This document shows, in pieces, positions 21,970-58,282 of a DNA stretch of 64,000 nt. Positions within the stretch are counted from its first letter, which is position 1. Every line of letters starts with the position of its first letter. The notes beneath the pieces were generated by a model. The model was not told the DNA's origin. It searched no databases and saw only the letters and a list, made by a program, of their open reading frames with translations. The stretch is from positions 2,197,664-2,261,663 of the forward strand of contig NC_030857.1 in NCBI RefSeq assembly GCF_000208745.1, written 5' to 3'. The translations under genes and the position numbers were made by a program. Source of the stretch: Theobroma cacao (taxonomy: Eukaryota; Streptophyta; Magnoliopsida; Malvales; Malvaceae).

Positions 21970-23506
<1,537 letters not shown>

Positions 23507-32224: not shown

Positions 32225-34337
32225 TCATGCAGCTGCCTGGATCGGCCCATTAGATCTAAACCCACGGCCCCTTCCACGATATCCCCTGCCACGGCCACGG
32301 CCTTCAAGAAGCAAACAGACAGAGACAAGACCATTAGAAAATGGTATTCTTCCCTACTCATCTGTACAAGAAAATAAAAAAAACTCTCTCCGCCTTTCTT
32401 CTGAAGGCAATTCACATGACAGATGATAGAAAACTTCCTCACATAGCATGTAGCATGTCACATGTCACACCAAGGTTATGGTTGCACTCTCCTAATTAAC
32501 TTTTATTTATGCTGCACCATGATATATGTACTCTAAGTGCATTTTGTTTTGTTCATGTTCAGAATGGTTCAAATTGCAACATGTTGAGAAAAAATAAGGC
32601 CAACATTCTTGGTGATTGTGGACAGATACCTACAACAAACTATGAGGTAAACTATCATGCGTACTAAATATTTCTTTAAAACAAAAATGAGATAAGGGAG
32701 AAAACCCACCACGGCCACCTTGAGGAGGGGCTTCATAATTGTAGCCTACATCTTGCTGCCTATCAACCTGAGGTCCGTTGTATCCTCCACGCCCACGGCC
32801 TCGGAAACCACGTCCTCTTCCTCGACCTCTACCCCTAGCATAGCCACGATTGCGGTCCCAGCCTCCATCCTCATACTCCACAGAGACAAAACCATTCCCT
32901 GAAGAAAAATGCAACTAAATATTGCTTAAAATGCAACTCAATAAGCTTCTATGACATTCAATCATTCAGTGCCGTGGTAACTAATGCCCCTAGCAAAACA
33001 AAAACAACCTCTAACAGGGTGCATCTCAATATTCAAATTAACATACCTCTACTCCTTGGCCTTCCTCTACCACCACGGCCTCTACCACGGCCATTAGGTG
33101 AGCCCTCTGCCAAACAAAAGAATTCTATAAAACGAAATATGGGCATCACAGAAAAACAGTGCAAATAACAAAATGTGTCCTTACCTCCTTCATGATCAAT
33201 TTCTGCGGATGGCTTCACCTGATCAGCTGGTAATGGAGGCTGATACCTGGATACGTAAGCAATTAATGAGTCACAAACATCTCTGGAAATTCATGTCAAC
33301 TAGAACAAGAAGCCCCACAACATCAAGCCACCACCATCATAGATGCTAAAACCTTCCATAAGCCAAAAATTTCTAGCTTCCAACATTTGCAAAAATTTAA
33401 TTAAACAAGAAATGAAGATAAAACCAACTTGTTTCATATGAACAAAAAAAGCTCAGTTGACCTCATTTAATAATTCAAAATTCACTAAAATTGAAGGAAC
33501 CATGCAAAGTAAAGTACAATGGTACACAACATAATTCATCAGTGCACACTTCAAGTGTAAGAACTTACCCAACAGAGGAAGTATTCAATTCTTTTTTTGA
33601 AAGGGTTATAGTGATCATTGACACATGCCTTGTGGTCTCCAATCTGTTATAATTAAACAAATGTTACTAAAATTCTCTAGATAAACACAGGTTAAAGGTC
33701 AGAAAAACAACAACTGTTTATCATGATAAGGTCAAATAGCTCTTACGGAAGAAGTCCTTCCTCCAAAGGCTCCCATATATCTGTTATGTCCGTGGACCCA
33801 ATCGACGTAATCTGATGTAGACCAACAATTCTCCTCTGCATTCATTTGAAGCACATGGAACACAAATTCAGCCTCCCTAAACACGAACCAAAAGATAAAA
33901 TCCATTCACGAAGGCAAGTGCATACAGGTAAAAGAATACCTTAATTAACTCCACTATAGTAACAGTCTTGTTGATGGCTCTTCCCATTGCCTTAAACACT
34001 ATTTCATTCGAGCCCTTTTCCTAAGAAGAAAAACATTAAATGAAAAAAAAAAAAGAGTTACACGACAATGCTTAACTATTCAAATTAAGGGCAATCACAA
34101 ACACTTAAGAAATAACCTTTCTGGTAAATATTTCTCAAAATAATCAAACACCCAACTCAAATAAAGGTCTAAATATGCAGAAATTGAACAAACAAAAAGG
34201 AAAAGAAAAGAAACCTGGAGCAGAGTCATGGCATAAGTGATATAACTACGCATCCTGCCTTGACTGGTAATCCGAATCTCATTCTCGTCAATGGGTGTCT
34301 CTGCTTTCGGCTTCTCCACTCTCTGGTAACGATCCAT
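32225..34337 (-). CDS. ALBA: Alba DNA/RNA-binding protein with C-terminal RGG tail
   Basis: Eight exons join in frame: 34215-34337, 33940-34020, 33747-33835, 33569-33643, 33185-33246, 33047-33106, 32710-32898 and 32225-32301, giving 251 residues. The Alba fold covers about residues 18-115 (NEIRITSQGRMRSYITYAM, KAMGRAINKTVTIVELIKRR, ITIGST-like loop). The C-terminal half is built from Arg-Gly repeats spread over the last three exons and ends in GPIQAAA. Long RGG-tailed Alba proteins in Arabidopsis (ALBA4-6) bind mRNA and enter stress granules and P-bodies; smaller family members bind R-loops. The first coding base directly follows a TAG acceptor (34338-34340), and a good donor lies near 34543, suggesting a 5' UTR intron of about 200 bp. 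Confidence 0.93.
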
Positions 34338-35903
34338 CTATTCTCCACCAAAAATCAATATTTCAAAAGTTCAAACGTACCCCAAACCCAAAAAAAACAA
34401 AAAAATTAAAAATTAAAAATACCAAACAATAAAAAGAGTAAAAATAAAAAATAAAAAAAGGGGAGCGGGATTGGAGGAAGTGAAGAAACAGAAGTAAAGG
34501 AAAAGGGGGGGTGGGGTTTGGGGGTTAGATCTGAGAGAGATACCTTTTGTGGCTTATGGAGTAAGGAGTAGTAAAGATAGAAAAAGGGGGGTACTCTCCA
34601 CCAAGAGACAGCCCTCTTCTACGGCTTATTTTTCTTTTCTGTTCTTTTACGCCCTAAAGCCGCTCTCTCGAGATGTCTCTCGCTCCTTTATATCCCCACG
34701 CTGACGCTGCCACGCTTCTAAAACTGCCCTAACCGACCCTTTTATCCGGTTCACCCGGTTCTCTTCCCTTGAACCCTTTTATTTGTTTATTTACAATCAC
34801 ACTGTTCCAACTACTACCAATTTTTTATTTTTTGAAATTTCCTTTTATTTTTCCAAACTCAATTCAAATGAAAAGTATAATTTTTTCCTAAATCTTGAGC
34901 GTATTTTGTTAAAAATGCTTATTCTTAATTGACCTTAAAACTAATTTTGTCACAATCTCTTAATGTTTGACTGATTCGATTGATCAATACCCTTCCTTAT
35001 TCCTACACATAAGAATAGAAGAATTCCAAAAAATAATATTTCCTCCGTCTTAGTTTCTTTCGTCTCAAAATGAAGTTTATTTTTCTTTGTTTAACATTTA
35101 ATTCTCTTATCTATATTATAGTTTTTTTTATATTAAAAAGTATTGAACATTTATATTATAAAAAAATTTCAAATTTTATTGTAAAATAACATCAAAATCA
35201 AATATTTTTACTTTAATTTTCATAAAAATAAAAGAAAATCATATAATTAGGAACATAAAAAATAATATGTTATATAATTAGGAACATAAAAAATAATATG
35301 TTTACATGTTCTCCCGACTCTCCATAGTAATAACCATTTTGTTAATCCTTTTTCTCAATTTGTATACTTTTTCTTCTTCTTTTTTTATTTATTTTGTATT
35401 ATTATATTAATTAATTAATTAATTAATTAAAAAAACTCACTATAATTTTCCAATCAAAACTAATCCTTTTTCACACAAAAAAGTGTACCCTCATGAAAGA
35501 GCTAGAAGAAATTGAATACCAATCTTATTAGGCCCAATGTTCTAATCAGGCCCAGCTCTCAGGTTGGCAAGGTCAACAGATCCTAAACTCTGCCCTACCC
35601 CTACTCCATGCCCATGGTCAGGTTTTGAATAACCCAAACAAGAAGAAAGATTGATACACATAATCTACTTTCATTATGAATTATATACATCATTAGCCAT
35701 TGTTTTAGTACAAAATCCACTTTTGAAACTCCCAAATCACTGCCAATAATGTGATAATAAAAACCATTTATTTAGGATATCCTATGTCTTTGGCAGCTAC
35801 TTGAACTACAGAACATCCAACATTACTTGAACAGTGTTCATTCACTATCATACATCAAGCGGATACCACCTGAAGAATGTGTCCTGATATATTGCGGACT
35901 TCT
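34338..35903. other. Intergenic region left of the tandem duplication
   Basis: Contains the probable 5' UTR intron and promoter of the Alba gene on the left, very AT-rich DNA in the middle with a 31-bp direct repeat, and from about 35370 the start of duplication copy A with the 3' UTR of its DsbA-like gene. Confidence 0.55.
35241..35302. repeat. Perfect tandem duplication of a 31-bp AT-rich unit
   Basis: Positions 35241-35271 are repeated immediately at 35272-35302 (unit begins ATATAATTAGGAACATAAAA). It is a simple two-copy array in intergenic DNA about 70 bp left of the large gene-pair duplication. Confidence 0.85.
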
Positions 35904-38080
35904 TCAAAAAAATAAGTGCCGAGAATTGTCACTCTTTCTGCCCCGTGCAACAAGCAATGGATCAATGATGCTTCTCCATCCCTTATAGTCTATTGCGGAG
36001 CCAGGATCAGGCAATGCAAATCCATTGATGTAGAAAGAAGGTGTCCCAAATACTCCTCTTGAGGCACTATACTGCATGTCGGAAGATATAACAGTGAGAG
36101 AGAGTAGAAGTAATGATGAAACTGCATGTATGATAGTCCATGGAAATAATAGAGATTGATCACAAACGACACCACCTAAAATAATGCATTGGGCACAAAA
36201 AAATTTATACTGTCATAGTACGCATTTGATTGCACTACCACCATCAACTTTTCATCTACAGAAAACAGGATAAAAAGAAAGGAAGAACTCTTTTCTTGGG
36301 GGGAGCAAGTGATATACCTTGAAAGAAACTCTTGTTTTAAGATCAGTTTTCCTGTCACTGAAACCTGATTCAATTGCAGAATAATAGGAGTTTCCAACTG
36401 ATTCTGCTGTAAACTTTATGATTTCATTCACAACAGCAACTCTCGACATGTTGCGTGTTTGGTCATTGTAAAACCTCTCCTGTTTAATAATACCCAACAA
36501 GTTCAGTGCAAAATACTGTAGACAAAATCAATATTCATGTAATAATACCCGCAAATAAATGAGGCTAATTGATAATCATATGAGAGCAATGCTACTAAAC
36601 CTTAAACTTAACAACAATGCAAATGTTCACTCATCAGCCACATAATTGCTTCTTAAATCTACCATAATGGCTTTAACATGGGATCAAAATCAACTAGACG
36701 AAGAACTATGACCCTCAGAGCCATCAGACAGGTCTCACAGTGCAGACTGTAAAGCTAAAGACACAAAGATGATAATCTAAATGATATCAAATGCTTCAGA
36801 AGAAAAGCTGACAGAAGCCTTACCTCAAAGGTACTTGATAACTATGAAGAGAAACTAGCACATGTAGCATCAGTTTTCCTACAATTGCTAAAATTCAATG
36901 CACCTTGAAATTAACGGACCGACTAGAAATAGCTTTAAAACCACTAAGAAAACATCTTCTCATGAAGATCAAATATTAAGAAATATATTTAAAAATTAAA
37001 ATCAAGACGAAAATGATGTGAACATACAATCAACGGGCAACCAAACAAGTAGGAGTGGGGATGAAACAGAAGTAGTGTAATGCATAGTCTTACAAATACA
37101 GCTATTTTCCATTTCTTTACTAAAGTACATTTCGCCTGTTAGAAAAAGATAATTTAAAGCTAGAAAATGGAAAATCAGAACCTGATGCTCGAAGAAGCTC
37201 TCCAACAGTGTGAAAGTAGCAGAAGGATTGAGCAAATTTACAATGTGCAAGGCCCGGGAAGTGGCGAAGGCATAGTCATGGTAACTGCAATTTCCAATTT
37301 GAAACCTCTCAAAACTCACCATCATTTAAGAGTTAAAAAGATAAATCATCAATTCCAAATTCTAAATTTCTAATCAAGGTTGACATAAAGGAATGATATT
37401 TCAGCAGGTTTCACACTACACTAAAAAAACAACTGAACAAGCAAGAGGTTTTGAATGGGGAATGTTAAATTCAAAATCCAATTTGTTAAAGCCAGAACTT
37501 TTTCCAGAATAACAACTCAAACAAAAAGCCAGGGTGTTCAAAGTTCAAGAAGTGTTCATCCCAATTTTTCTTCTTCAGCTGGATGTTCAAGCACGAAGAA
37601 CAATAAATAAAACCCAGAATAATCACTTTAAGCTAAAGCTAGTAACAGCCACTAGGTAGCTTGATCGGGATCTGTTTCAAATCCAAAATTCAATTTTTAT
37701 TCCTTCTTAAATTTCTCAGAAAAAAAAAAGAAATACAGAGTAAAAGGAGAATCAAATAAAAAACAAACATATTAGAAAGAGAGAGCGACTGACGGTAATG
37801 GGAGAAGGTGAATCGTGAGCATAACGCGAGAACCGTAATGTTGAATAGCTTGCTTGAGAGGGGGCCATGAGTCTCTGCTATCGGGGCAGACCGGGTCGAA
37901 GAACGCCTCGATCATGATCGTGTCCGAGTCAACTTGGCGGTTGGTATACACGAACCCATCGTACTTCGCCGGCGGCAAAGACTGAGCTTGCACCGTCCGT
38001 TCAGACACATAAACAAAAGCAAACAAGCAGAACACAACTGATGATAATGATGAAAAAGTTGCTCCTTTCCCTGTCCTCAT
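35904..38080 (-). CDS. Secreted DsbA-like thioredoxin-fold protein (At1g20225-like), intact copy
   Basis: Four exons join in frame: 37794-38080, 37182-37284, 36318-36479 and 35904-36071, giving 239 residues. It has an N-terminal signal peptide (about 1-32), then AKYDGFVYTNRQVDSDTIMIEAFFDP. The active-site position reads CPDS (Cys65, Ser68) in place of CxxC, and near the C-terminus VFGTPSFYINGFALPD supplies the cis-proline loop (GTP) of DsbA-type folds. Plant members are called thioredoxin superfamily proteins, and their biochemistry is poorly known. A single cysteine suggests a monothiol or non-catalytic chaperone-like role in the secretory pathway (inference). It is divergently arranged with a PPR gene; its own PPR partner is a decayed fragment, and a second DsbA-like copy to the right has a stop codon. 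Confidence 0.88.
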
Positions 38081-38338
38081 TTTTGCCCTTTTGTCTATTG
38101 TTTGGGGAGGCGTTTAGCTGATTTATCTTATCTCTTTATTCTTTAAACAGTACTACGCAGGCTAGCCTGACTTAGAATGCGCTTATCTTACTTGTACCTT
38201 TTGGATTAAGTTGCCCTTCTCTCCACGTCAAGTATGGTTGACGTCGCAAAGACAACGGTTGCTGATGCGAAAGGTTGCCCGCGGTGTCCCATAAAGCGGC
38301 TTCCGGTTAAAAACTAGGGCGGTTACGACTAACAAGCC
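38081..38338. promoter_or_regulatory. Shared upstream region of DsbA-like gene and PPR fragment (copy A)
   Basis: Only 258 bp separate the divergent start codons. About 38168-38338 is closely similar to 42026-42201 in copy B (shared AGAATGCGCTTATCTT, TGTACCTTTTGGATTAAG, CTCCACGTCAAGTA). At the position of the PPR-side TATA box the intact copy reads CCTATAAAGA, whereas here it reads CCCATAAAGC, so the core TATA has lost its first T. Confidence 0.6.
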
Positions 38339-38732
38339 ATGACAGGGCAAGCTCTGCTCTTTTTCGAAATTCTGAACCGTTCAATTCTTCCTCGCCTGAA
38401 CTCAGCCGCGGCATCTTTATCACAAACCAGCCAGGCTCATGCTTACATTCTAAAATCTGGAGTTTGTAACGATGCCCTTGTTTTTACAAAGCTCATCTCA
38501 CAATATGCTAATCGCCATTGCTTTGCCGAAGCAGAACTTGTCCTTTAACTCAATATCTGAGCCATTGGTATCTTCCTTTTCTGCTCTCATTTATCCAATC
38601 GCTCAATGTTTTGTATTTTTTTTGGATAATCGCGTGCTTCCGAATGTTGTCAAGGCTTGCGGTAAATTATCGGCCTTCAAATTGGGCAAAATTTGTCGTA
38701 AAATATGGGTTTGATTCAGATTTAGTTGTTCA
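38339..38732 (+). pseudogene. Truncated, frameshifted 5' fragment of the PPR gene
   Basis: The ATG and first 69 codons match the start of the intact PPR-DYW gene at 42202 (FFEILNRSIL, SQTSQAHAYILKSGV, FTKLISQYANRHCFAEAE). An extra T in CTTGTCCTTTAACTC creates a stop at 38546-38548. Further on there is an internal deletion around 38590-38625 (about 45 bases missing relative to the intact gene) and another near 38690. Homology ends at 38732, where the duplication junction replaces the rest of the gene with T-rich DNA. It cannot encode a PPR protein; a short peptide is conceivable if transcribed. Confidence 0.9.
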
Positions 38733-39334
38733 AGCTTACTTTTTTTTTTTTTGTATTTTGTAGTATTATTATTAATTAATTAAATTAATTAAAAAAACTC
38801 ACTATAATTTTCCAATAAAAATTAATCCTCTTTCACACAAAAAATTGTACCATCATGAAAGATTTAGAAGAAAATGAATACAAACCATATTAAAATTTCA
38901 AGTTACAACTGGATAAGTTAAAGCCCAATGTTCTGATCAGCCCAGCTCTCAAGTTGGCAAGGTAAACAGATCCTAAACTCTGCTCTACCCCATGTCCCCA
39001 TGGTCAGGTTTTGAATAACCAAAAAAAAAAAACAAAAAGAAAAGAAGATTGATGCACAAAAGTTACTTTCATTACGTAATTTCTACATCATTAGCCATTT
39101 ATTTAGTACAAAATCTACTTGTAAAACTCCCAAATCAATGCCAATAATGTGATAATAAAAACCAATCTAAGCAAACAACTAAATAAAAATAAAAGACTAC
39201 GGGTTTATTTCGTAACAATTTATTTAGAATCCTATGTCCATGGCATCTACTTGATGGAACAGTGTTCATTCACTGCCATACATCAAGCAAATACCAGTCG
39301 AAGAATGTGTCCTAATATATTGCTGAATCCTTCA

Positions 39335-41538
39335 TTAAAATAAGTGCGGAGAATTGCCACTCTTTCTGCCCTGTGCAGCAAGCAATGGATCAATGACGCT
39401 TCTCCATTTCTTATAGTCTATTGCGGAGCCAGGATCAGGCAATGCAAATCCGTTGATGTAGAAAGTAGGTGTCCCAAACACTCCTCTTGAGGTACCATAC
39501 TGCATGTCAGAAGATATAACAGTGTTAATGGCATGTACAAAGCTTAGCAGAGAGAGAGAGACTAGAAGCAATGATGAAACTGCATGTATGATAGTCCATT
39601 GAAATAATAGAGATTGATCACAAACGAAATGACACCACCTAAAATAATGCATCGGTCACAAAAAAATTTATATTGTCATAGTATGGATTTGATTGTACTA
39701 CCACCATTAACTTTTCATCTAGCAGAAAACAGGAAGAACTTTTTCTTTTGGGGGGGCGGTCTTTGGGGGACCGATTTACCTTGAAAGAAACTCTTGTTTT
39801 GAGATCAGTTTTGCTGTCATTGAAACCTGATTTAATTGCAGAATAATAGGAGTTCCCAACTGATTCTGCTGTAAACTTCATGATTTCATTCACAACAGCA
39901 ACTCTCGACATGTTGAGTGTTTGGTCACTCAAAAACCTCTCCTGTTTAATAATAGGCAACAAGTTCAGTGCCCAATCAATATACATGTAGTAAAACAGGC
40001 AAATAAATGCGGCTAATTGATAGTCATATGGGTGCAATCCTACTAAACATTAAACAATTTTGCATTTCCATTTGAAAAACAATGCAAATGTTCACTCATC
40101 AGCCACACAACTGTTTATAAATCTATCTTTATGGCTTTAACATGGTGATCAAGATTGCCTAGAGCAAGAACCTCAGAGCCATCCAAGAGGTCTTACAATG
40201 CAGAATGTAAAGCTAAGGACCCAAAGATGAGAATCTGAATGAATTGAAATGCTTCAGAAAAAAAGCGCTCACAGAAGCCTTAACTTAAAGGTACTCGTTA
40301 AATATGAAGAGAAACCAGCACATCTATTAGCAGTTTCCTCCAATTGCTAAACTTCAGTGCACCTTGAAGTTAACAAACCACTAGAAACAGCTTTAGAACT
40401 ACTAAGAAAACATTTTGTCATGAAGACCAAACATTAAGAGATATATTCTAATATTACAATCAAGACGAAAATGATGTGAACATACTGTCAACCAACAACC
40501 AAACAAGTAGCATTGGGATGAAACAGAAGTAGTGTAATGCATAATCCAACAAATACAGCTATTTTCCATTTCTTTACTAATGTAAATTTAGCCTGTTAAA
40601 AAGAGATAATTCAAAGCTAGAAAATGGAAAATCAGAACCTGATGCTTGAAGAAGCTCTCCAACAGTCCGAAAGTAGCAGAAGGATTGAGCAGGTTTACAA
40701 TGTGCAAGGCACGGGAAGTAGCGAACGCATAGTCATGGTAACTGAAATTTCCAATTTAAAACAACTCACCATCATTTAAGAGTTAAAAGAAAAAGTCATC
40801 AATTCAAAATTCTGAATTTCTGATCAAGGTTGTCATAAAGGAATGATATTTCAGCACGTTTCACACTAAACTAAAAAAACAACTGAACAAGCAAGAGGTT
40901 TTGCATGGGGAGTGTTAAATTCAAAATCCCATTTGTTAAAGCCAGAACTTTTTCCAGAATAACAACTCAAACAAAAAGCCAGGATGTTCAAAGTTCAAGA
41001 GTTAAATCAGAAACTAGAAGTGTTCATCCCAATTTTTCTTCTTCAGCTGGATGTTCAAGCACAAAGAACAATAAAGAAAACCCGGAATAATCATTTTAAG
41101 CAAAAAACTAGTAACAGCCACTAGGTTCTGTTTCAAATCCAAGATTCAATTTTTATTCTTTCTTAAATTTCTCAGAAAAAAAATAGAAAAACAAAGTAAA
41201 AGGAGAATCAAAACAAAAACATATAAATATTAGAAAGAGAGAGCGACTGACGGCAAAGGGAGAAGGTGAATCGTGAGCATAACGCGAGGACCGTAGTGTT
41301 GAATAGCTTGCTTGAGAGCGGGCCATGCGTCTCTGCTATCGGAGCAGACCGGGTCGAAGAACGCCTCGATAATGATCGTGTCCGAGTCTACTCGGCGGTT
41401 ACTATACACGAACCCATCGTACTTCGCCGGCGGCAAAGACTGAGCTTACACCGTCCGTTGACACACAATAACAAAAGCAAACCAGCAGAACACAACTAAT
41501 GATAATGATGAAAAAGTTGTTCCTTTCACTGTCCTCAT
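39335..41538 (-). pseudogene. DsbA-like thioredoxin-fold gene, second copy with premature stop
   Basis: All four exons and splice sites are preserved: 41252-41538, 40639-40741, 39780-39941 and 39335-39499, corresponding to 239 codons. Codon 31, CAA (Gln) in copy A, is TAA here (41446-41448), a single C-to-T change at the end of the signal peptide. Everything downstream remains open, including KYDGFVYSNRRVDSDTI, a CSDS active-site variant of CPDS and VFGTPTFYINGFALPDP. That suggests recent inactivation. Alternatives are an internal start giving a protein without a signal peptide (no good ATG is close), readthrough, or a sequencing error. The C-terminus is one residue shorter (HLF). Confidence 0.85.
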
Positions 41539-42201
41539 TTTTTCTGTGTCTCCGGGCTTTATACGATGTACGAGAAATAAAATAGATTTACCCGCTTTGT
41601 ATTTAAAATGAAAGCAAACAGCGCTATTTAGAAACACTCTCTTTTAATCTTAAGAGAACTCTATCTTTGCTTGAAGTACAATTAGAATAAATAACAATTA
41701 AAAAGAAAGATAAAAATATTAAGTGATTTATTTTTAATAGAACATAATTAACTTATAATCTTAAATTAATTTAACTACTTAAATGGATAGCATTGCACAA
41801 GAAGTTCAATTCTAGTAGACAATTCATTTGCATGGCTCACAAGCGCGCAGGCCTTACGCGTCAAACCCGTTAATCTGCTCCGTTCTGCACAGCCTAATCA
41901 TTTTACGTCTCGTACAGTCCAATCCTGTTAGTGTCTTGCGCCTACGGCAACTTATTCGCTGTTCTTCCGATGATGGCCTGGATTGAGCTTGTCACGGGAT
42001 TTACGAGCCGTGTCAAGGAAGGTTAACTTGACCTAGAATGCGCTTATCTTGCTTGTACCTTTTGGATTAAGTTGCCCTTCTCTCTCCACGTCAAGTAAGA
42101 ATGACGTGGCAAATTCAACGGTTGCTGATGCGACGGGTTGCCTCCTGTGTCCTATAAAGAGGCTTACGGTTCAAAATTAGGGCGATTACTACTACCGGGC
42201 C
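41539..42201. promoter_or_regulatory. Divergent upstream region of the second pair (copy B)
   Basis: The right part (42026-42201) is the conserved PPR promoter, with CTCCACGTCAAGTA and a TATA box (TATAAAGA, 42153-42160) about 42 bp before the PPR ATG. This implies a very short 5' UTR. The left part (41545-42021) is absent from copy A and includes AT-rich DNA and a less AT-rich stretch from 41820. It may be an insertion here or ancestral DNA deleted in copy A. Confidence 0.6.
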
Positions 42202-44478
42202 ATGACAGTGCAAGCTCTGCCCTTTTTCGAAATTCTGAACCGTTCAATTCTTCCTTGCCTGAACTCAGCCGTGGCATCTTTATCTCAAACCAGCCAGGCT
42301 CATGCTTACATACTAAAATCTGGAGTTTGTATAGATACCCTTATTTCTACAAAGCTCATCTCACAATATGCTAATCGCCATTGCTTTGCCGAAGCAGAAC
42401 TTGTCCTTAACTCAATATCTGAGCCATTGGTATCTTCCTTTTCTGCTCTCATTTATGCCCTCAACAAGTATAATCTTTTTACCCAATCGCTTTATGTTTT
42501 CTCTCGAATGCTCTCTCGCGGTATTTTGCCGGATAATCGCGTGCTTCCGAATGTTGTCAAGGCTTGCGGTAAATTATCGGCCTTCAAATTGGGAAAAGAA
42601 GTTCATGGAATTGTTGTAAAATATGGGTTTGATTCAGATTCAGTTGTTCAAGCTTCTTTGGTGCATTTGTACTTAAAAGGTGATCGGATCCAGGATGCTA
42701 AGAATGTGTTTGAGAGATTGCCGGAACGGGATGTGGTTACTTGCGGTGCTTTGCTTTCCGCTTATGCTCGCAAGGGTTGCGTTAATGAGGCAAAGGAAAT
42801 CTTTTATGGGATGCAAAGTTTCGGTGTGGGCCCCAATTTAGTGTCTTGGAATGGTATGATTACAGGGTTCAATCAAAGCGGACAATACAACGAAGCGGTT
42901 GTCATGTTTAAGGAAATGCATTCCGAAGGGTTTTTGCCTGATGATATTACAATTTCTAGTGTTTTTTCTGCTGTGGGCGATTTGGAGAGGTTAAATATAG
43001 GGATTCAGGTTCTTTGTTATGTGATCAAACTAGGTCTTTTGCATTGCAAGTTTGTTATTAGTGCGCTTATGGATATGTTTGGAAAATGTGCATGTGCAGG
43101 GGAGTTGATGAAAGCGTTTGAAGAGGTGGATGAGGAGATTATGGATACAGGTGCTCTCAATGCTTTAATAACTGGACTGTCTCGAAATGGTCTTGTTGAT
43201 GTTGCATTGGAGACATTTCAGCGATTTAGAGTGCAAGGGAGGGAATTGAATGTTGTATCCTGGACATCAATAATTGCTGGATGCTCACAGAATGGGAAGG
43301 ATATTGAGGCATTGGAGCTTTTCAGAGAGATGCAGAGTGCAAGGTTGAAGCCAAACTCTGTAACAATACCTTGCTTGCTGCCAGCTTGTGGAAACATTGC
43401 AGCATTGATACACGGTAAGGCAGCTCATGGCTTTGCAATTAGAACAGGAATTGCCAATGATGTTCATGTTGGCAGTGCATTAGTTGATATGTATGCTAAG
43501 TGTGGAAGAATCCATTTGTCTCGACTTTGTTTTGATAGGATACCGAGCAAAAACTCAGTCTGTTGGAATGCAATTATGGGAGGATATGCAATGCATGGTA
43601 AGGCTAAGGAAGCTATTGATATTTTTCATATGATGCAAAGGAGAGGGCAGAAGCCTGATTTTATCAGCTTTAGTTGTGTTTTATCTGCTTGCAGTCAGGG
43701 TGGCCTAACAGAAGAAGGTTGGCATTTTTTCAATAGTATGTCTAGAGACCATGGAGTCAAAGCAAAAATGGAGCATTATTCCTGCATGGTAAACCTTCTA
43801 GGTCGTTCTGGAAAGCTAGAACAAGCGTATGCCTTGATCCAGCAAATGCCATTTGAACCAGATGCCTGTGTTTGGGGAGCTTTGCTTAGTTCTTGTAGAC
43901 TTCACAATAACATTAGTTTAGGTGAGATTGCTGCACAGAACCTCTTCAAATTAGAACCAAGCAATCCTGGAAATTACATCCTTCTTTCCAATATATATGC
44001 GTCTAAGGGCATGTGGGATGAAGTAGATGCCGTGAGAGATGTCATGAGGAGTAGGGGCATGAAGAAGAATCCTGGTTGCAGTTGGATTGAGGTCAAGAAT
44101 CAAGTGCACATGCTTCTTGCAGGAGACAAATCACATCCACAAATGACTGAGATCATTGAGAAGATATATAAATTGAGCATGGACATGAAGAAAGCAGGTT
44201 ACCTCCCAAATACTGACTTTGTGTTGCAAGATGTGGATGAACAGGACAAGGAGCAGATCTTGTGTGGGCACAGTGAGAAGTTGGCAGTAGCCTTTGGGCT
44301 TCTGAACACTCCTCCTGGCTCTCCACTGCAAATAATAAAAAATCTCAGAATCTGTGGTGATTGTCATGCTGTTATAAAATTTATATCTGGCTTTGAAGGG
44401 AGAGAAATATATGTCAGAGACACAAATCGCTTTCATCATTTTAAAGATGGAGTTTGTTCTTGTCGGGATTATTGGTGA
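42202..44478 (+). CDS. PLS-type pentatricopeptide repeat protein with E/E+ and DYW domains (At1g20230-like)
   Basis: A single intronless exon of 758 residues, typical of plant PPR genes. Tandem P, L and S repeats (VVSWTSIIAGCSQNGKDIEA, ALVDMYAKCGRIH, CWNAIMGGYAMHGKAKEAID) run from about residue 30 to 560. They are followed by E/E+ motifs (PDACVWGALLSSCRLH, NYILLSNIYASKGMWDEV), the PG box (GCSWIEVKNQVH) and a complete DYW domain. The DYW domain has HSEKLA (zinc/catalytic HxE, about residue 690), CGDCH (about 718) and terminal DYW. DYW proteins carry the cytidine deaminase for C-to-U RNA editing in plastids or mitochondria. The target site is unknown, and I see no unambiguous targeting peptide by eye. 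The synteny partner in Arabidopsis is of similar length. Confidence 0.93.
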   Translation: MTVQALPFFEILNRSILPCLNSAVASLSQTSQAHAYILKSGVCIDTLISTKLISQYANRHCFAEAELVLNSISEPLVSSFSALIYALNKYNLFTQSLYVFSRMLSRGILPDNRVLPNVVKACGKLSAFKLGKEVHGIVVKYGFDSDSVVQASLVHLYLKGDRIQDAKNVFERLPERDVVTCGALLSAYARKGCVNEAKEIFYGMQSFGVGPNLVSWNGMITGFNQSGQYNEAVVMFKEMHSEGFLPDDITISSVFSAVGDLERLNIGIQVLCYVIKLGLLHCKFVISALMDMFGKCACAGELMKAFEEVDEEIMDTGALNALITGLSRNGLVDVALETFQRFRVQGRELNVVSWTSIIAGCSQNGKDIEALELFREMQSARLKPNSVTIPCLLPACGNIAALIHGKAAHGFAIRTGIANDVHVGSALVDMYAKCGRIHLSRLCFDRIPSKNSVCWNAIMGGYAMHGKAKEAIDIFHMMQRRGQKPDFISFSCVLSACSQGGLTEEGWHFFNSMSRDHGVKAKMEHYSCMVNLLGRSGKLEQAYALIQQMPFEPDACVWGALLSSCRLHNNISLGEIAAQNLFKLEPSNPGNYILLSNIYASKGMWDEVDAVRDVMRSRGMKKNPGCSWIEVKNQVHMLLAGDKSHPQMTEIIEKIYKLSMDMKKAGYLPNTDFVLQDVDEQDKEQILCGHSEKLAVAFGLLNTPPGSPLQIIKNLRICGDCHAVIKFISGFEGREIYVRDTNRFHHFKDGVCSCRDYW

Positions 44479-54210: not shown

Positions 54211-57200
54211 ATGAAGGAGATGAATTGGGAAAACAACTCCAACAATCCGGTTCAAACTCTGACAAACGGTGACTCCGAGAAGATTTCAACCTCTAGATTT
54301 TCTTCTCTTCTGGCTTCTAAAGATCGGGATTATCTTCTCTCCTCCAGTGAAGCTGAAGCTGAAGCTGATCAGGTTCCCTTCTCTCTCTCTCTCAACCTTT
54401 TGCTTTTTATGGAAGGAATATATCTAACATCCGTTGGGTTTTTAGCTACCAGACCCTGGTTTATCCATGGTTTTTTTTCTTCTTTGCTGAAGCATTTGTT
54501 CTTTATCTTCAGCATCTAATGTTTTTTTAGTGTAAACGTGGTTGTGGGTCAGAGATGAAGCATGCACTTGCTTTTGGCCTAACTCACTCATGGCTTCACC
54601 GCAATAATCTCCTGCCAAAACTTTTTGTACTCTCGATCATCATAGATCGACTCCTTTTCTACCTTTTCTTTTCCCCCTCTTCTTCTCCTAGCTAGGTCCA
54701 ACTTCATAAAGAGAGGCAGCAGGAACAAGACTTCCTACTGAAACTACATGCAGACCTTTCAGACGGACCTTCTAGAACTATTATTATTGTATTATTTTTC
54801 TCTAAAAGGAACTTAATTTAATTAACTATACTTATTATTACGATCTAATTCCTAATAAATTATCCGATTATAAGTTATTTTACTTAAAATATAATATAGA
54901 TTACTAAATACCTATTATCCTTGGAAATCTTTGAGGAGATTTGTCTGGTAGCAAGTGACTGCTGGGAATACACTACACATGGCTTGGTAGCTGGTAAGTT
55001 AGTCGGTCTGTGTTAGGGAGGAAAGTTCATTAGGGTTTTGAAATGGCAAGAAACTCACCTGCCATTGCTCTTTTTCAATACAATCTATAGTTTTTTTTTC
55101 TCATTAATGTTGACATGTGGCTTTCCCTCATGGAATTTAAGAGGTGGGTTAGTTTGGGCTGCTATGGATCCTCACCAAACTGTCTGGTTAGTTTCTATTT
55201 CTAACCAGGCAATAATTAAGTTTATACCTCGGAACATAATACACTATTTCATGTACCAAGTTTACTGAATTAGATTGATTTTATGGGATGGAAAAGAAAA
55301 TCAACACGTTTTCCAGGAAGTTTGAGTTTGTAAGGGATCCTAAACCTAACTCCCATCTGCTAATGTATATGCTAGACAGCCCAAATTGTTAAGTTAGGGT
55401 ATCAATCATTGATATGATACTGATCATCCAGATATATTATGGCACCACCAAAGATGAAAAAACATATGGGATTGTCTGATAGAACTTGTTAAGTGAGTAG
55501 ATCTTATGTTAGTTCACGAGTTGGCACAGTTTTTGTTAAATTATCAAACTCGAAAATGACGTTGATTTAGTTTTGAAGGGAAAAAATTATTCTGGGTCGT
55601 CTTATGTAATTATGATTGTAAGGTGAATCTTTTAAAAGATATGCTACTTTTGTATGGAATCACATGAAATTAGCTGGGATTGAGTATTGAAGGACTGTGT
55701 AAGATGCATAATGTAAAATCTCTAATCCTCCTGTCGGCAATCCAACACTGCCCGAACAAAATTGGTTGTGAAGAAATATTCTTTTTGGTGTTCTTGTCGT
55801 GGTTATGTTGCTCTTGTGGGGAAGGGAATAGGGGGAAGAATTCTTCGTATGAGGGTGGGGTGCCGGGCTGATTGAAAAACCCCACCTCCATCCTTCCTCC
55901 TCCCCGCAGTCCTCCTACTGGTCTAGGTTGGGGGGGGGCGGGGGGTGCTCGCTAAGATACTCCTTGTCACGAGCAACACATGCCAAATATGCCTGTCCTT
56001 ATCAATAGGGGTTCCCACACTGCAGTTTGTGCTGTGAACAACTAAGATGGAAGGACATGTGGCTTTGCTGTTCATCGCTTTAGCCTCACACTCACGCCAT
56101 AGCAGTAACACGTGGCATATTTATCCTTACGATTCCGGAAAGCTGGTAGCACATCGCTTTCAGATTTTGGGGTTTGTAGGGTTGATTTTTTGTGGTGTGG
56201 ATTCTTACTTATACTACTTTCCTAGTTATGGTATCCTTTCTCATTAGCTTCAAATACACTGCCTAACATAAAATGTAAGAGTATCGGTTTGTGGACAAAC
56301 AAACTTGACTTTTTCATTTGGTGCTGAATCGCACCATTACTTGGTTTCTTTATTTATAGCAGGTGAAAATTTCGGATCTTGAGGGCAGGGTGATTGGCCT
56401 TTACTTCTCAGCTAACTGGTATCCGCCGTGTAGAAATTTCAATCAAGTACTTGTCGATGTCTATGATCAGCTGAAGAGCAATGGGTCTAATTTTGAGATT
56501 GTATTTGTGTCATCTGATGAAGACTTGGATGCCTTCAACAATTACAGGAAAAGCATGCCATGGCTCTCAATTCCATTCTCTGACTTGGAGACAAAGAAGG
56601 CCTTGAACCGAAAATTCGAAGTCGAAGGCATTCCTTGCTTAATTATTTTGCAGCCTGAAGATAACAAGGATGGTGCAACTTTCTATGATGGTGTGGAACT
56701 CATTTACCGGTATGGGGTCGAAGCATTCCCATTTACCAAAGAGAAGTTGGAGGAATTACAAAGGGAAGAAAGGATGAGGCATGAGACTCAGACCTTGAAG
56801 AATTTATTGACAAACCCTGATAGAGACTATATTTTGGGTCAACCCATAACTAGAAAGGTCAGTGCTTACATCTCATTGATGTAATGTAGTTGGATAATAT
56901 GTTGTTAAACGTGGCTTAGCTTTTAAGACCTCGCTGATATTGATTGATGATTGGAAATTTTGTTGCTGAGAGAGTATTAAAGCATGTAATATTGTGTCTC
57001 TTTTTAGCTGCACACATATTCTTTCATGTGTGCATTGCACTTTATATGTTCTACAACTTTTTTCTACTTTTTGCAATCAAAAACATCATTTTTTTCTTTT
57101 TTAACATTCCATTTTATCCTAAAATAATTGTTCTTTTAAAGGTACTTACCATTTATAGTCTTTAATGAGTCTATTCTTGCATACATAGATAACATAGTTT

Positions 57201-58282
57201 CAAGAAATAGAACCTCATATACCTTTCTGGGGCATTGACCATAGTGACTGTCATCTAATCTCGAGCACAAGAGTGGCATACCCTATACATCTTAATAAAT
57301 TAAACCAATTTTCTTGCATAGTTAATGAAGCAAATTCTCTTTATAGCTTATATTGATGCGAGTAAGTATGTGTTGAGCAATCAAACTTTAACAGGGTATT
57401 ATTTCAGGTATGCTAACTGAGTAAGCTCCACTTGTTGATCATGTTGTCCTTTACCCTTACTTTTTGAAAAGGTATCCTCACCCGACATTATCATATCTGT
57501 AAGGTCCAATTCCCAGTGTCATCTGAGGCAAGGGCGAAGCTGGATTCACCGACTTGATCTTGGAGTTCCTGAGCCCTCCCTTATGTGGCGTAGATACTTT
57601 GAGATTAATGTTCTTGTGTTAAGGGCTGATTGAGTTGTATATGTTTCCTTTGCAGGTGCAAGTGGATTCCTTAATAGATAAGACAATTGGGCTCTACTTC
57701 TCAGCCCAATGGTGCCTTCCAGGTGTTACGTTCACTCCCAGGCTGATATCCATCTACCAGAAAATCAAGCAAACCTTGGAAGAAAAAGGTGGTGAGGACT
57801 TCGACATAGTTTTTGTGTCGAATGATCGCGATCAGAGTTCGTTTGACACCTACTTTGGTAGCATGCCATGGCTAGCTTTGCCTTTCGGAGACCCCAGCAT
57901 TAAAAGCCTTGCAAAGTACTTCGATGTGCAAGGCATTCCCTGTTTGATAATCATAGGGCCTGATGGCAAAACTGTAACCAAGCAAGGAAGAAATCTTATA
58001 AACCTGTACCAGGAAAATGCATACCCTTTCACCGATGCCAAAGTGGAGTTGCTAGAGAAAGAAATGGAGGAGGCAGCTAAGAGCTTCCCAAAATCCGAAT
58101 ACCATGCAGGACACCGCCATGAGCTTACCTTGGTATCGGAAGGCACTGGAGGGGGGCCCTTTATATGCTGCGATTGTGATGAGCAGGGTTCCGGTTGGGC
58201 TTACCAGTGTCTGGAATGTGGGTACGAGGTGCACCCCAAGTGCGTCAGAGCTGTGGCCCCAGGCTCAACTGAAGGAAGCTGA
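54211..58282 (+). CDS. NRX: Nucleoredoxin-like protein, two thioredoxin-fold domains plus C-terminal C1-like zinc motif
   Basis: Three exons join in frame: 54211-54372, 56363-56857 and 57656-58282, giving 427 residues. The first Met in good context (ATGAAGGAG) is used. Domain 1 (about 55-185) has active site WYPPC (Tyr74, Cys77). Domain 2 (about 220-350) has WCLPG (Cys239). Both contain IPCLIILQP or IPCLIIIGPDG cis-Pro loops and the MPWL motif of tryparedoxin-like folds. The C-terminus (about 370-415) carries a DC1/C1-like Cys/His motif (CCDCDEQGSGWAYQC, ECGYEVHPKC). Plant nucleoredoxins reduce protein disulfides in cytosol and nucleus; NRX1 protects catalases. Here each domain keeps only one of the two active-site cysteines. 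Intron 1 is 2 kb and contains a long G-run (55930-55945). NRX2-like is the best class guess; the exact subtype is uncertain. Confidence 0.88.

What the first reader, a model, noticed from the sequence alone, without database searches (positions are those of the whole stretch)
35370..42655. Tandem duplication of a divergent gene pair with reciprocal gene loss
A segment carrying a DsbA-like gene (-) and the start of a PPR-DYW gene (+) is duplicated head to tail. Copy A retains an intact DsbA-like gene but only a frameshifted 394-bp PPR fragment. Copy B retains the intact PPR gene but its DsbA-like gene has a nonsense codon. Each duplicate has therefore kept a different member of the original pair, and the two functional genes, once about 260-660 bp apart, now start about 4.1 kb apart. 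This is a compact natural case of uncoupling a putative bidirectional promoter.
Basis: partly seen in the sequence, partly recalled or inferred. Interest (0 to 1): 0.75.

Follow-up and report, generated by a model that had tools for sequence, protein, structure and literature searches.

The report
Cacao tandem duplicate, partly born broken
A stretch of a cacao chromosome carrying one complete thioredoxin-like gene and only the first fifth of a neighbouring RNA-editing-type gene was copied next to itself long ago, so one copy of the second gene was most likely broken from birth and later one copy of the first gene acquired a stop signal; this is a fairly ordinary gene-duplication history with one point worth checking in cacao's sister genus.

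Summary
The tandem duplication is real. Copy A is 35365-38736 and copy B 38737-42655, 88.9% identical over 3308 aligned bases. The window is Theobroma cacao Criollo, chromosome 8. Copy A holds an intact four-exon DsbA-like gene; copy B's is open except for TAA at codon 31, with all splice sites kept.

"Reciprocal gene loss" is only half right. The A/B junction lies inside PPR codon 152, exactly where copy B reads on into the rest of the PPR gene. One simple tandem duplication would have copied only the first 20% of the PPR gene, so the A fragment was never a whole gene. Only the DsbA-like gene was duplicated whole, and only it lost a copy later.

The duplication is older than the genus. The one Herrania protein listed is B-type and intact; (B, Herrania) has 100/98 support, and an A+B clade is rejected (p-AU 0.005). 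Copy B's loss therefore seems later than that split. Whether Herrania keeps A is unknown; if not, the two genera kept opposite copies.

The shared bidirectional promoter is unproven: the retained 181 bp evolve no slower than introns. Inverted ACGT boxes there are a lead.

The parts
35365..38736 (.). Copy A of the tandem duplication
   Evidence: Repeat families and alignment; edges read by eye
38737..42655 (.). Copy B of the tandem duplication; the PPR gene continues past its right edge
37794..38080 (-). DsbA-like gene, copy A, exon 1 (start codon at 38080)
37182..37284 (-). DsbA-like gene, copy A, exon 2
36318..36479 (-). DsbA-like gene, copy A, exon 3
35904..36071 (-). DsbA-like gene, copy A, exon 4 with stop; 239 aa in all
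   Evidence: acceptor, end (the exon 4 anchor failed)
41252..41538 (-). DsbA-like gene, copy B, exon 1, holding the premature stop
41446..41448 (-). TAA at codon 31 of copy B (CAA in copy A; lysine in Herrania and the 7 other Malvaceae compared)
40639..40741 (-). DsbA-like gene, copy B, exon 2
39780..39941 (-). DsbA-like gene, copy B, exon 3
39335..39499 (-). DsbA-like gene, copy B, exon 4 with stop
38339..38736 (+). 5' fragment of the PPR gene in copy A, cut by the duplication junction, with later indels
42202..44478 (+). Intact PPR-DYW gene (At1g20230 type by database names), 758 aa; the duplicated part ends at 42655 inside codon 152
38081..38338 (.). Head-to-head intergenic stretch of copy A, 258 bp
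41539..42201 (.). Head-to-head intergenic stretch of copy B, 663 bp
41545..42019 (.). Part of the copy B intergenic stretch with no counterpart in copy A (edges approximate); within it 41603-41817 resembles 4 other places in the genome at 69-74%
42086..42109 (.). Inverted pair of TGACGTGG boxes in copy B; in copy A (38223-38246) one box is exact and the other reads TGACGTCG
32225..34337 (-). Alba-domain gene next to the DsbA-like gene (3' end read by eye, approximate)

Best explanation
A single tandem duplication in an ancestor of Theobroma and Herrania copied about 3.4-3.9 kb that held one complete DsbA-like gene, the intergenic stretch, and only the first 454 bases of the PPR gene. The left-hand PPR copy was therefore truncated at birth and has drifted as a relic, while the right-hand one still reads into the full gene. 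The two whole DsbA-like copies both stayed open for a long time; copy A kept the family's conserved residues, copy B changed some of them before the two genera split, and copy B later gained a nonsense codon in its signal-peptide region in the cacao lineage, while a B-type gene stays intact in Herrania. Shown: the anatomy, the junction, the tree, the stop. Inferred: one event rather than two, and that copy B makes no functional protein.
For: The junction 38736/38737 joins PPR codon 152 to the left edge of the unit, and copy B's PPR continues past the same point. In the A fragment 12 of 15 amino-acid differences from B are A-derived against 5 outgroup proteins, 2 B-derived, 1 ambiguous; 6 synonymous to 16 nonsynonymous changes in 129 codons: drift of a relic. 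(B, Herrania) 100/98, with A outside; A+B held together rejected, p-AU 0.005; of 38 positions where the three differ, 20 have B = Herrania, 8 A = Herrania, 5 A = B and 5 all different. Herrania P0001 is open, with lysine at codon 31. Zero indels in 720 exon bases against 18 in 1400 intron bases, 9.3 expected, P about 1e-4: both frames were kept. Copy A keeps 47 of 47 invariant and 37 of 37 nearly invariant columns of 39 relatives aligned without it; copy B keeps 47 and 33, Herrania (itself a row of that alignment) 47 and 34.
Against: No A-type protein is in the protein listings, not even from cacao: nothing above 87% identity to A among the 120 listed of 477, nor among the 35, although a PPR record of another cacao genotype is there; so copy A's status outside this assembly is unseen. 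dN/dS between A and B is 0.80 (0.43-1.63), so purifying selection on the amino acids between the copies is weak, and the kept frame rests on the indel count. A larger first duplication followed by a deletion would leave the same junction. The AU test was named after the tree had been seen. The stop rests on one assembly, whose quality value a later paper gives as 38.8 (PMC11009333, passage).
Confidence: 0.82

Rival explanations
1. True reciprocal loss: the whole pair, with a complete PPR gene, was duplicated, and a later deletion removed the rest of the left PPR gene together with the start of the second unit.
For: Two copies and one open member of each are also expected under this.
Against: Needs a second event. 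Between the cut PPR fragment and copy B nothing of the missing 1.8 kb of PPR sequence is left: the junction is direct. A search of the assembly for that 1.8 kb elsewhere did not complete.
Confidence: 0.1
2. Assembly artefact or two divergent haplotypes laid end to end.
For: The stop is a single base in an assembly of quality value 38.8.
Against: 11% divergence, with indels and a B-specific stretch of about 475 bp; B groups with another genus, so A and B cannot be two recent cacao alleles. No N in the window.
Confidence: 0.03
3. Copy B is not dead: the sequence at the TAA also reads GTAAGC, a good 5' splice site, and removing the rest of exon 1 from there to exon 2 keeps the frame, giving a shorter protein without the Cys-65 motif.
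For: GTAAGC lies at exon offset 89, phase 2 like the native donor, so 198 nt would be removed in frame; splice sites and the rest of the frame are intact.
Against: A frame match has a one-in-three chance; the product would lack the conserved CPDS/CSDS region; no transcript evidence was available.
Confidence: 0.05

Closest known systems
Partial tandem duplication that leaves a truncated gene copy, followed by nonsense loss of one duplicate (ordinary birth and death of duplicates; from general knowledge)
   Same: One event, one copy cut by the junction, later loss of one whole copy
   Different: The unit straddles a head-to-head pair, so the two open genes end up in different copies
Divergent resolution (reciprocal loss) of duplicates between related species, as in the Mimulus hybrid-lethality case (PMC5896889, start of abstract seen in the search listing)
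   Same: Cacao Criollo has an open A and a stopped B; Herrania has an open B-type gene
   Different: Herrania's A copy was not seen, the copies are adjacent and so tightly linked, and no hybrid effect is known
Bidirectional gene pairs of Arabidopsis (PMC2648788, passages read; start sites at most 1000 bp apart, 13.3% of genes)
   Same: Head-to-head start codons with 258 and 663 bp between them
   Different: Transcription start sites and co-expression are unknown here; one passage of that paper gives a heat-shock/PPR head-to-head pair whose score falls below its threshold, so a PPR gene in such a pair need not share a promoter

Membership tests
DsbA / DsbA-like thioredoxin fold | Profile and fold match | tested here: inconclusive
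   Thioredoxin_4 26 bits, over its 23.2 cut-off; DSBA 22.9 bits, under its 25.6 cut-off. One sequence match in the PDB at E <= 1, 3gn3, E 6.7e-5; model of the Herrania relative matches 3gn3 best, TM 0.74 by target length, then many DsbA-type chains (mean pLDDT 76)
DsbA / DsbA-like thioredoxin fold | CxxC redox motif | tested here: not met
   At this place CPDS in 113 of 120 relatives, CSDS 3, CPDT 2, CIDS 1, CPAS 1, so CxxC in 0 of 120; copy A's only cysteines are 18 (signal region) and 65
DsbA / DsbA-like thioredoxin fold | cis-proline loop (TP) | tested here: met
   T194 and P195 invariant in 39 aligned relatives and present in A and B; that this is the cis-Pro is recalled, not measured
PLS-class PPR protein with DYW domain | PPR repeats, E motif, DYW domain | tested here: met
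   PPR_2 200 bits, E_motif 91.5, DYW_deaminase 152.3, ending in DYW
Bidirectional gene pair | Opposite strands, transcription starts within 1000 bp | tested here: inconclusive
   258 and 663 bp between start codons; transcription starts not known
Bidirectional gene pair | Shared regulation or co-expression | not testable with these tools
   No expression data at hand
Reciprocal loss within the locus | Both genes duplicated whole, then one lost from each copy | tested here: not met
   PPR copy A ends at the duplication junction, inside codon 152 of 758; this holds on the one-event reading
Divergent resolution between genera | Opposite copies kept in two sister lineages | tested here: inconclusive
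   B-type open in Herrania, stopped here; neither Herrania's nor cacao's own A-type protein is in the listings

The most novel reading that the evidence does not exclude
The tandem DsbA-like pair was resolved in opposite ways by sister genera: cacao lives on copy A (ancestral CPDS motif, all conserved columns kept), Herrania on copy B (CSDS motif, changes at three nearly invariant positions), and each open gene now has its own private copy of what was one shared intergenic promoter with inverted TGACGTGG boxes, so that an old coupling of a secretory thioredoxin-like gene with an organelle RNA-editing factor could be tested in natural split and unsplit states.
Probability: 0.22. Interest if true: 0.5.

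Novelty: new member of a known kind. Interest (0 to 1): 0.3.

Why it matters
It is a clean example of how a tandem duplication that cuts through one member of a head-to-head pair can separate two neighbours without any loss of the pair as such. It also shows that counting 'reciprocal losses' by gene content can mislead: one of the two losses was most likely a birth defect. If Herrania lacks copy A, it becomes a natural test of whether the two paralogues are interchangeable. As it stands, specialists would find it tidy, not surprising.

Tried and rejected
Artefact or haplotype stacking: rejected by the tree and AU test. A second whole copy elsewhere: none among the matches returned for the exon 1 region, the PPR start and the DsbA-like protein. 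Fused or oddly long cacao gene models that could explain the missing A-type protein: none among the 35 hits. The B-specific intergenic stretch: 41603-41817 has 4 weak relatives (69-74%), no other part of the 481-base query matched, and the A-specific piece matches only itself; which state is ancestral could not be decided without relatives' DNA. RNA genes in the window: none at gathering scores, no tRNA. Papers: At1g20230 in 4 papers, once in each (none opened); At1g20225 in none; At1g76020 in 3 (none opened); a search for bidirectional promoter, tandem duplication, plant, divergent gene pair found 39 papers with 3 of 4 terms, 15 listed; one for pentatricopeptide, head-to-head, bidirectional promoter, thioredoxin found 13, 8 listed, none on this pair by title (passages of PMC2648788 read). 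Gene conversion: intron 1 differs at 6.3% against 13.1% in intron 2 (p 1.3e-4, post hoc), which suggests an old conversion tract; not pursued. Tajima relative rate of B against Herrania, 8 to 5, not significant. The 3-of-4 probability for TGACGTGG boxes treats homologous copies as independent and is not used. In some searches my anchors for exon 4 of copy A failed; one search settled it. A search for the rest of the PPR gene elsewhere in the assembly got no answer.

Full report
What is there. The window lies at G000:C8:2197664-2261663 of a 324.85 Mb assembly. Contig lengths 41.24, 36.36, 21.61 and 19.59 Mb for C2, C3, C7 and C8 match Table 2 of the cacao Criollo v2.0 paper (41.2, 36.4, 21.6, 19.6 for Chr2, 3, 7, 8; PMC5603072, passages read), and the window's PPR protein differs at 2 of 758 residues from a record named Theobroma cacao. 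So this is Theobroma cacao Criollo, Chr8. That paper counts 554 scaffolds, 134 of them anchored into 10 chromosomes, which by my arithmetic leaves about 430 sequences; this assembly has 431.

The duplication. Copies A (35365-38736) and B (38737-42655) align over 3308 bases at 88.9%. Read by eye, the junction shows about one base of shared sequence. The order from left is Rpn3-like gene, Alba-domain gene, DsbA-like A, PPR fragment, DsbA-like B, PPR-DYW gene. The Arabidopsis order At1g20220 (Alba), At1g20225 (thioredoxin-like), At1g20230 (PPR) is recalled and was not checked. Hits P0243, P0244, P0246, P0254 and P0266 carry an Alba domain, as if two neighbouring genes had been fused in one model. 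Comparing locus tags of DsbA-like and PPR hits by hand, I found neighbouring or nearly neighbouring numbers in 8 species (Diplodiscus, Pterospermum, Shorea, Hibiscus cannabinus, Morella, Malus, Carnegiea, Smallanthus) and distant ones in 10 (Erythroxylum, Oxalis, Anisodus, Hibiscus sabdariffa, Canavalia, Deinandra, Ancistrocladus, Liquidambar, Tetracentron, Ulmus). The listings show cluster representatives only, some species have paralogues, and tags do not give orientation, so this only hints that the neighbourhood is old.

The PPR fragment was probably never a gene. Copy A's PPR homology stops at the very base where the second unit begins, inside codon 152 of 758, while copy B runs on. That is the signature of the right-hand breakpoint of one tandem duplication. 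The fragment has since gathered a 1-bp insertion and gaps, and its replacements are mostly its own: 12 of 15. So the locus lost one whole gene (DsbA-like B), not one from each copy. A larger duplication with a later deletion would look the same and is kept as a rival.

The DsbA-like genes. Both have four exons of 287, 103, 162 and 168 (A) or 165 (B) bases with GT/AG borders. B has one premature stop, TAA at codon 31, in the signal-peptide region. Between A and B there are 14 synonymous and 36 nonsynonymous differences (dS 0.087, dN 0.070, ratio 0.80, bootstrap 0.43-1.63), yet no indel in 720 bases, where the intron rate predicts 9.3. The indel test treats events as independent and introns as fully free; still, it says that both frames were held for much of their history. 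Zero exon indels bound the dead time of B at about 65% of the age of the pair. Copy A keeps 47 of 47 invariant and 37 of 37 nearly invariant columns of an alignment of 39 relatives that does not contain it; B departs at 4 of the 37 (P66S, P74A, Y134L, N135S) and Herrania at 3 (P66S, Y134L, N135T). So A is the conservative copy, and the B lineage had moved at conserved places before the two genera parted.

Age and the other genus. In a tree of 22 proteins, B joins the Herrania umbratica protein P0001 (100/98) and A falls outside (95/91 for the three); holding A and B together costs 32.5 log units, p-AU 0.005, a test named after the tree was seen. The 20 positions where B = Herrania lie in all four exons (10, 1, 5, 4). 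The duplication therefore predates the split of the two genera, put at 9-12 million years in PMC11009333 and about 18 in PMC11152179 (passages read). Intron divergence averages 0.112. The motif at the conserved cysteine is CPDS in 113 of 120 relatives and CSDS in Herrania and B. In Herrania only a B-type protein was seen (P0001 represents a cluster of 12 sequences whose other members I could not see). I cannot call A lost there, because cacao's own A-type protein is missing from the same listings, which I cannot explain.

The promoter question. The intergenic stretch is 258 bp in A and 663 bp in B. They share about 181 bp next to the PPR start; this differs at 26 of 181 sites, against 145 of 1400 in introns (p 0.13), so there is no sign of joint constraint. 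The part next to the DsbA-like start has no counterpart between copies from about 4 bp upstream of the ATG; in B it holds a stretch like a dispersed repeat and a CpG-rich part that matched nowhere else (observed/expected 1.19 against 0.57 for the window). Two features were noticed. TGACGTGG occurs 4 times in 64 kb, 0.33 expected, and 3 of these are here, as an inverted pair in B and one exact plus one altered box in A; the two copies are homologous, so this is at most two independent boxes. TGACGTGG is a listed unfolded-protein-response element of mammals and CCACGTCA lies within the plant pUPRE (PMC3645738, passages read), which would suit a protein with a signal peptide, but that is a lead. 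B has TATAAA at 42153, which reads CATAAA in A. Each open gene thus still has an intergenic stretch of its own; 'private copies of a formerly shared promoter' describes it better than 'uncoupling', and neither is shown without expression data.

What the protein is. Pfam gives Thioredoxin_4 above its cut-off and DSBA below; the solved relative is 3gn3, a putative disulfide isomerase, also the best fold match of the model made for the Herrania relative (model only moderately confident). With CxxC in 0 of 120 relatives at this place it should be called thioredoxin-fold, DsbA-like, of untested activity.

Verdict. A correct observation, over-interpreted in one point and under-dated in another. Ordinary in kind; the open question is the state of copy A in Herrania and the other Theobroma.

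Noticed in passing
37285-37793 against 40742-41251: Intron 1 differs far less between the copies (6.3%) than intron 2 (13.1%) or the 3' flank (16.4%), which suggests an old gene-conversion tract.
   Followed up: partly
41545-42019: Copy B intergenic stretch without counterpart in copy A: a dispersed-repeat-like part and a CpG-rich part that matched nowhere else; ancestral state undecided.
   Followed up: partly
38223-38246 and 42086-42109: Inverted TGACGTGG boxes between the head-to-head genes; three of the four such boxes in the window.
   Followed up: partly
35904-38080 (protein listings): No A-type DsbA-like protein is listed, not even from cacao, although a PPR record of another cacao genotype is.
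   Followed up: partly
21970-22455: Peroxidase domain match covering only positions 144-237 of the profile on the minus strand; its other exons were not looked for.
   Followed up: no
56360-58282: Two Thioredoxin_8 domains and a C1 domain, a nucleoredoxin-like gene, in the same window as the DsbA-like pair.
   Followed up: no
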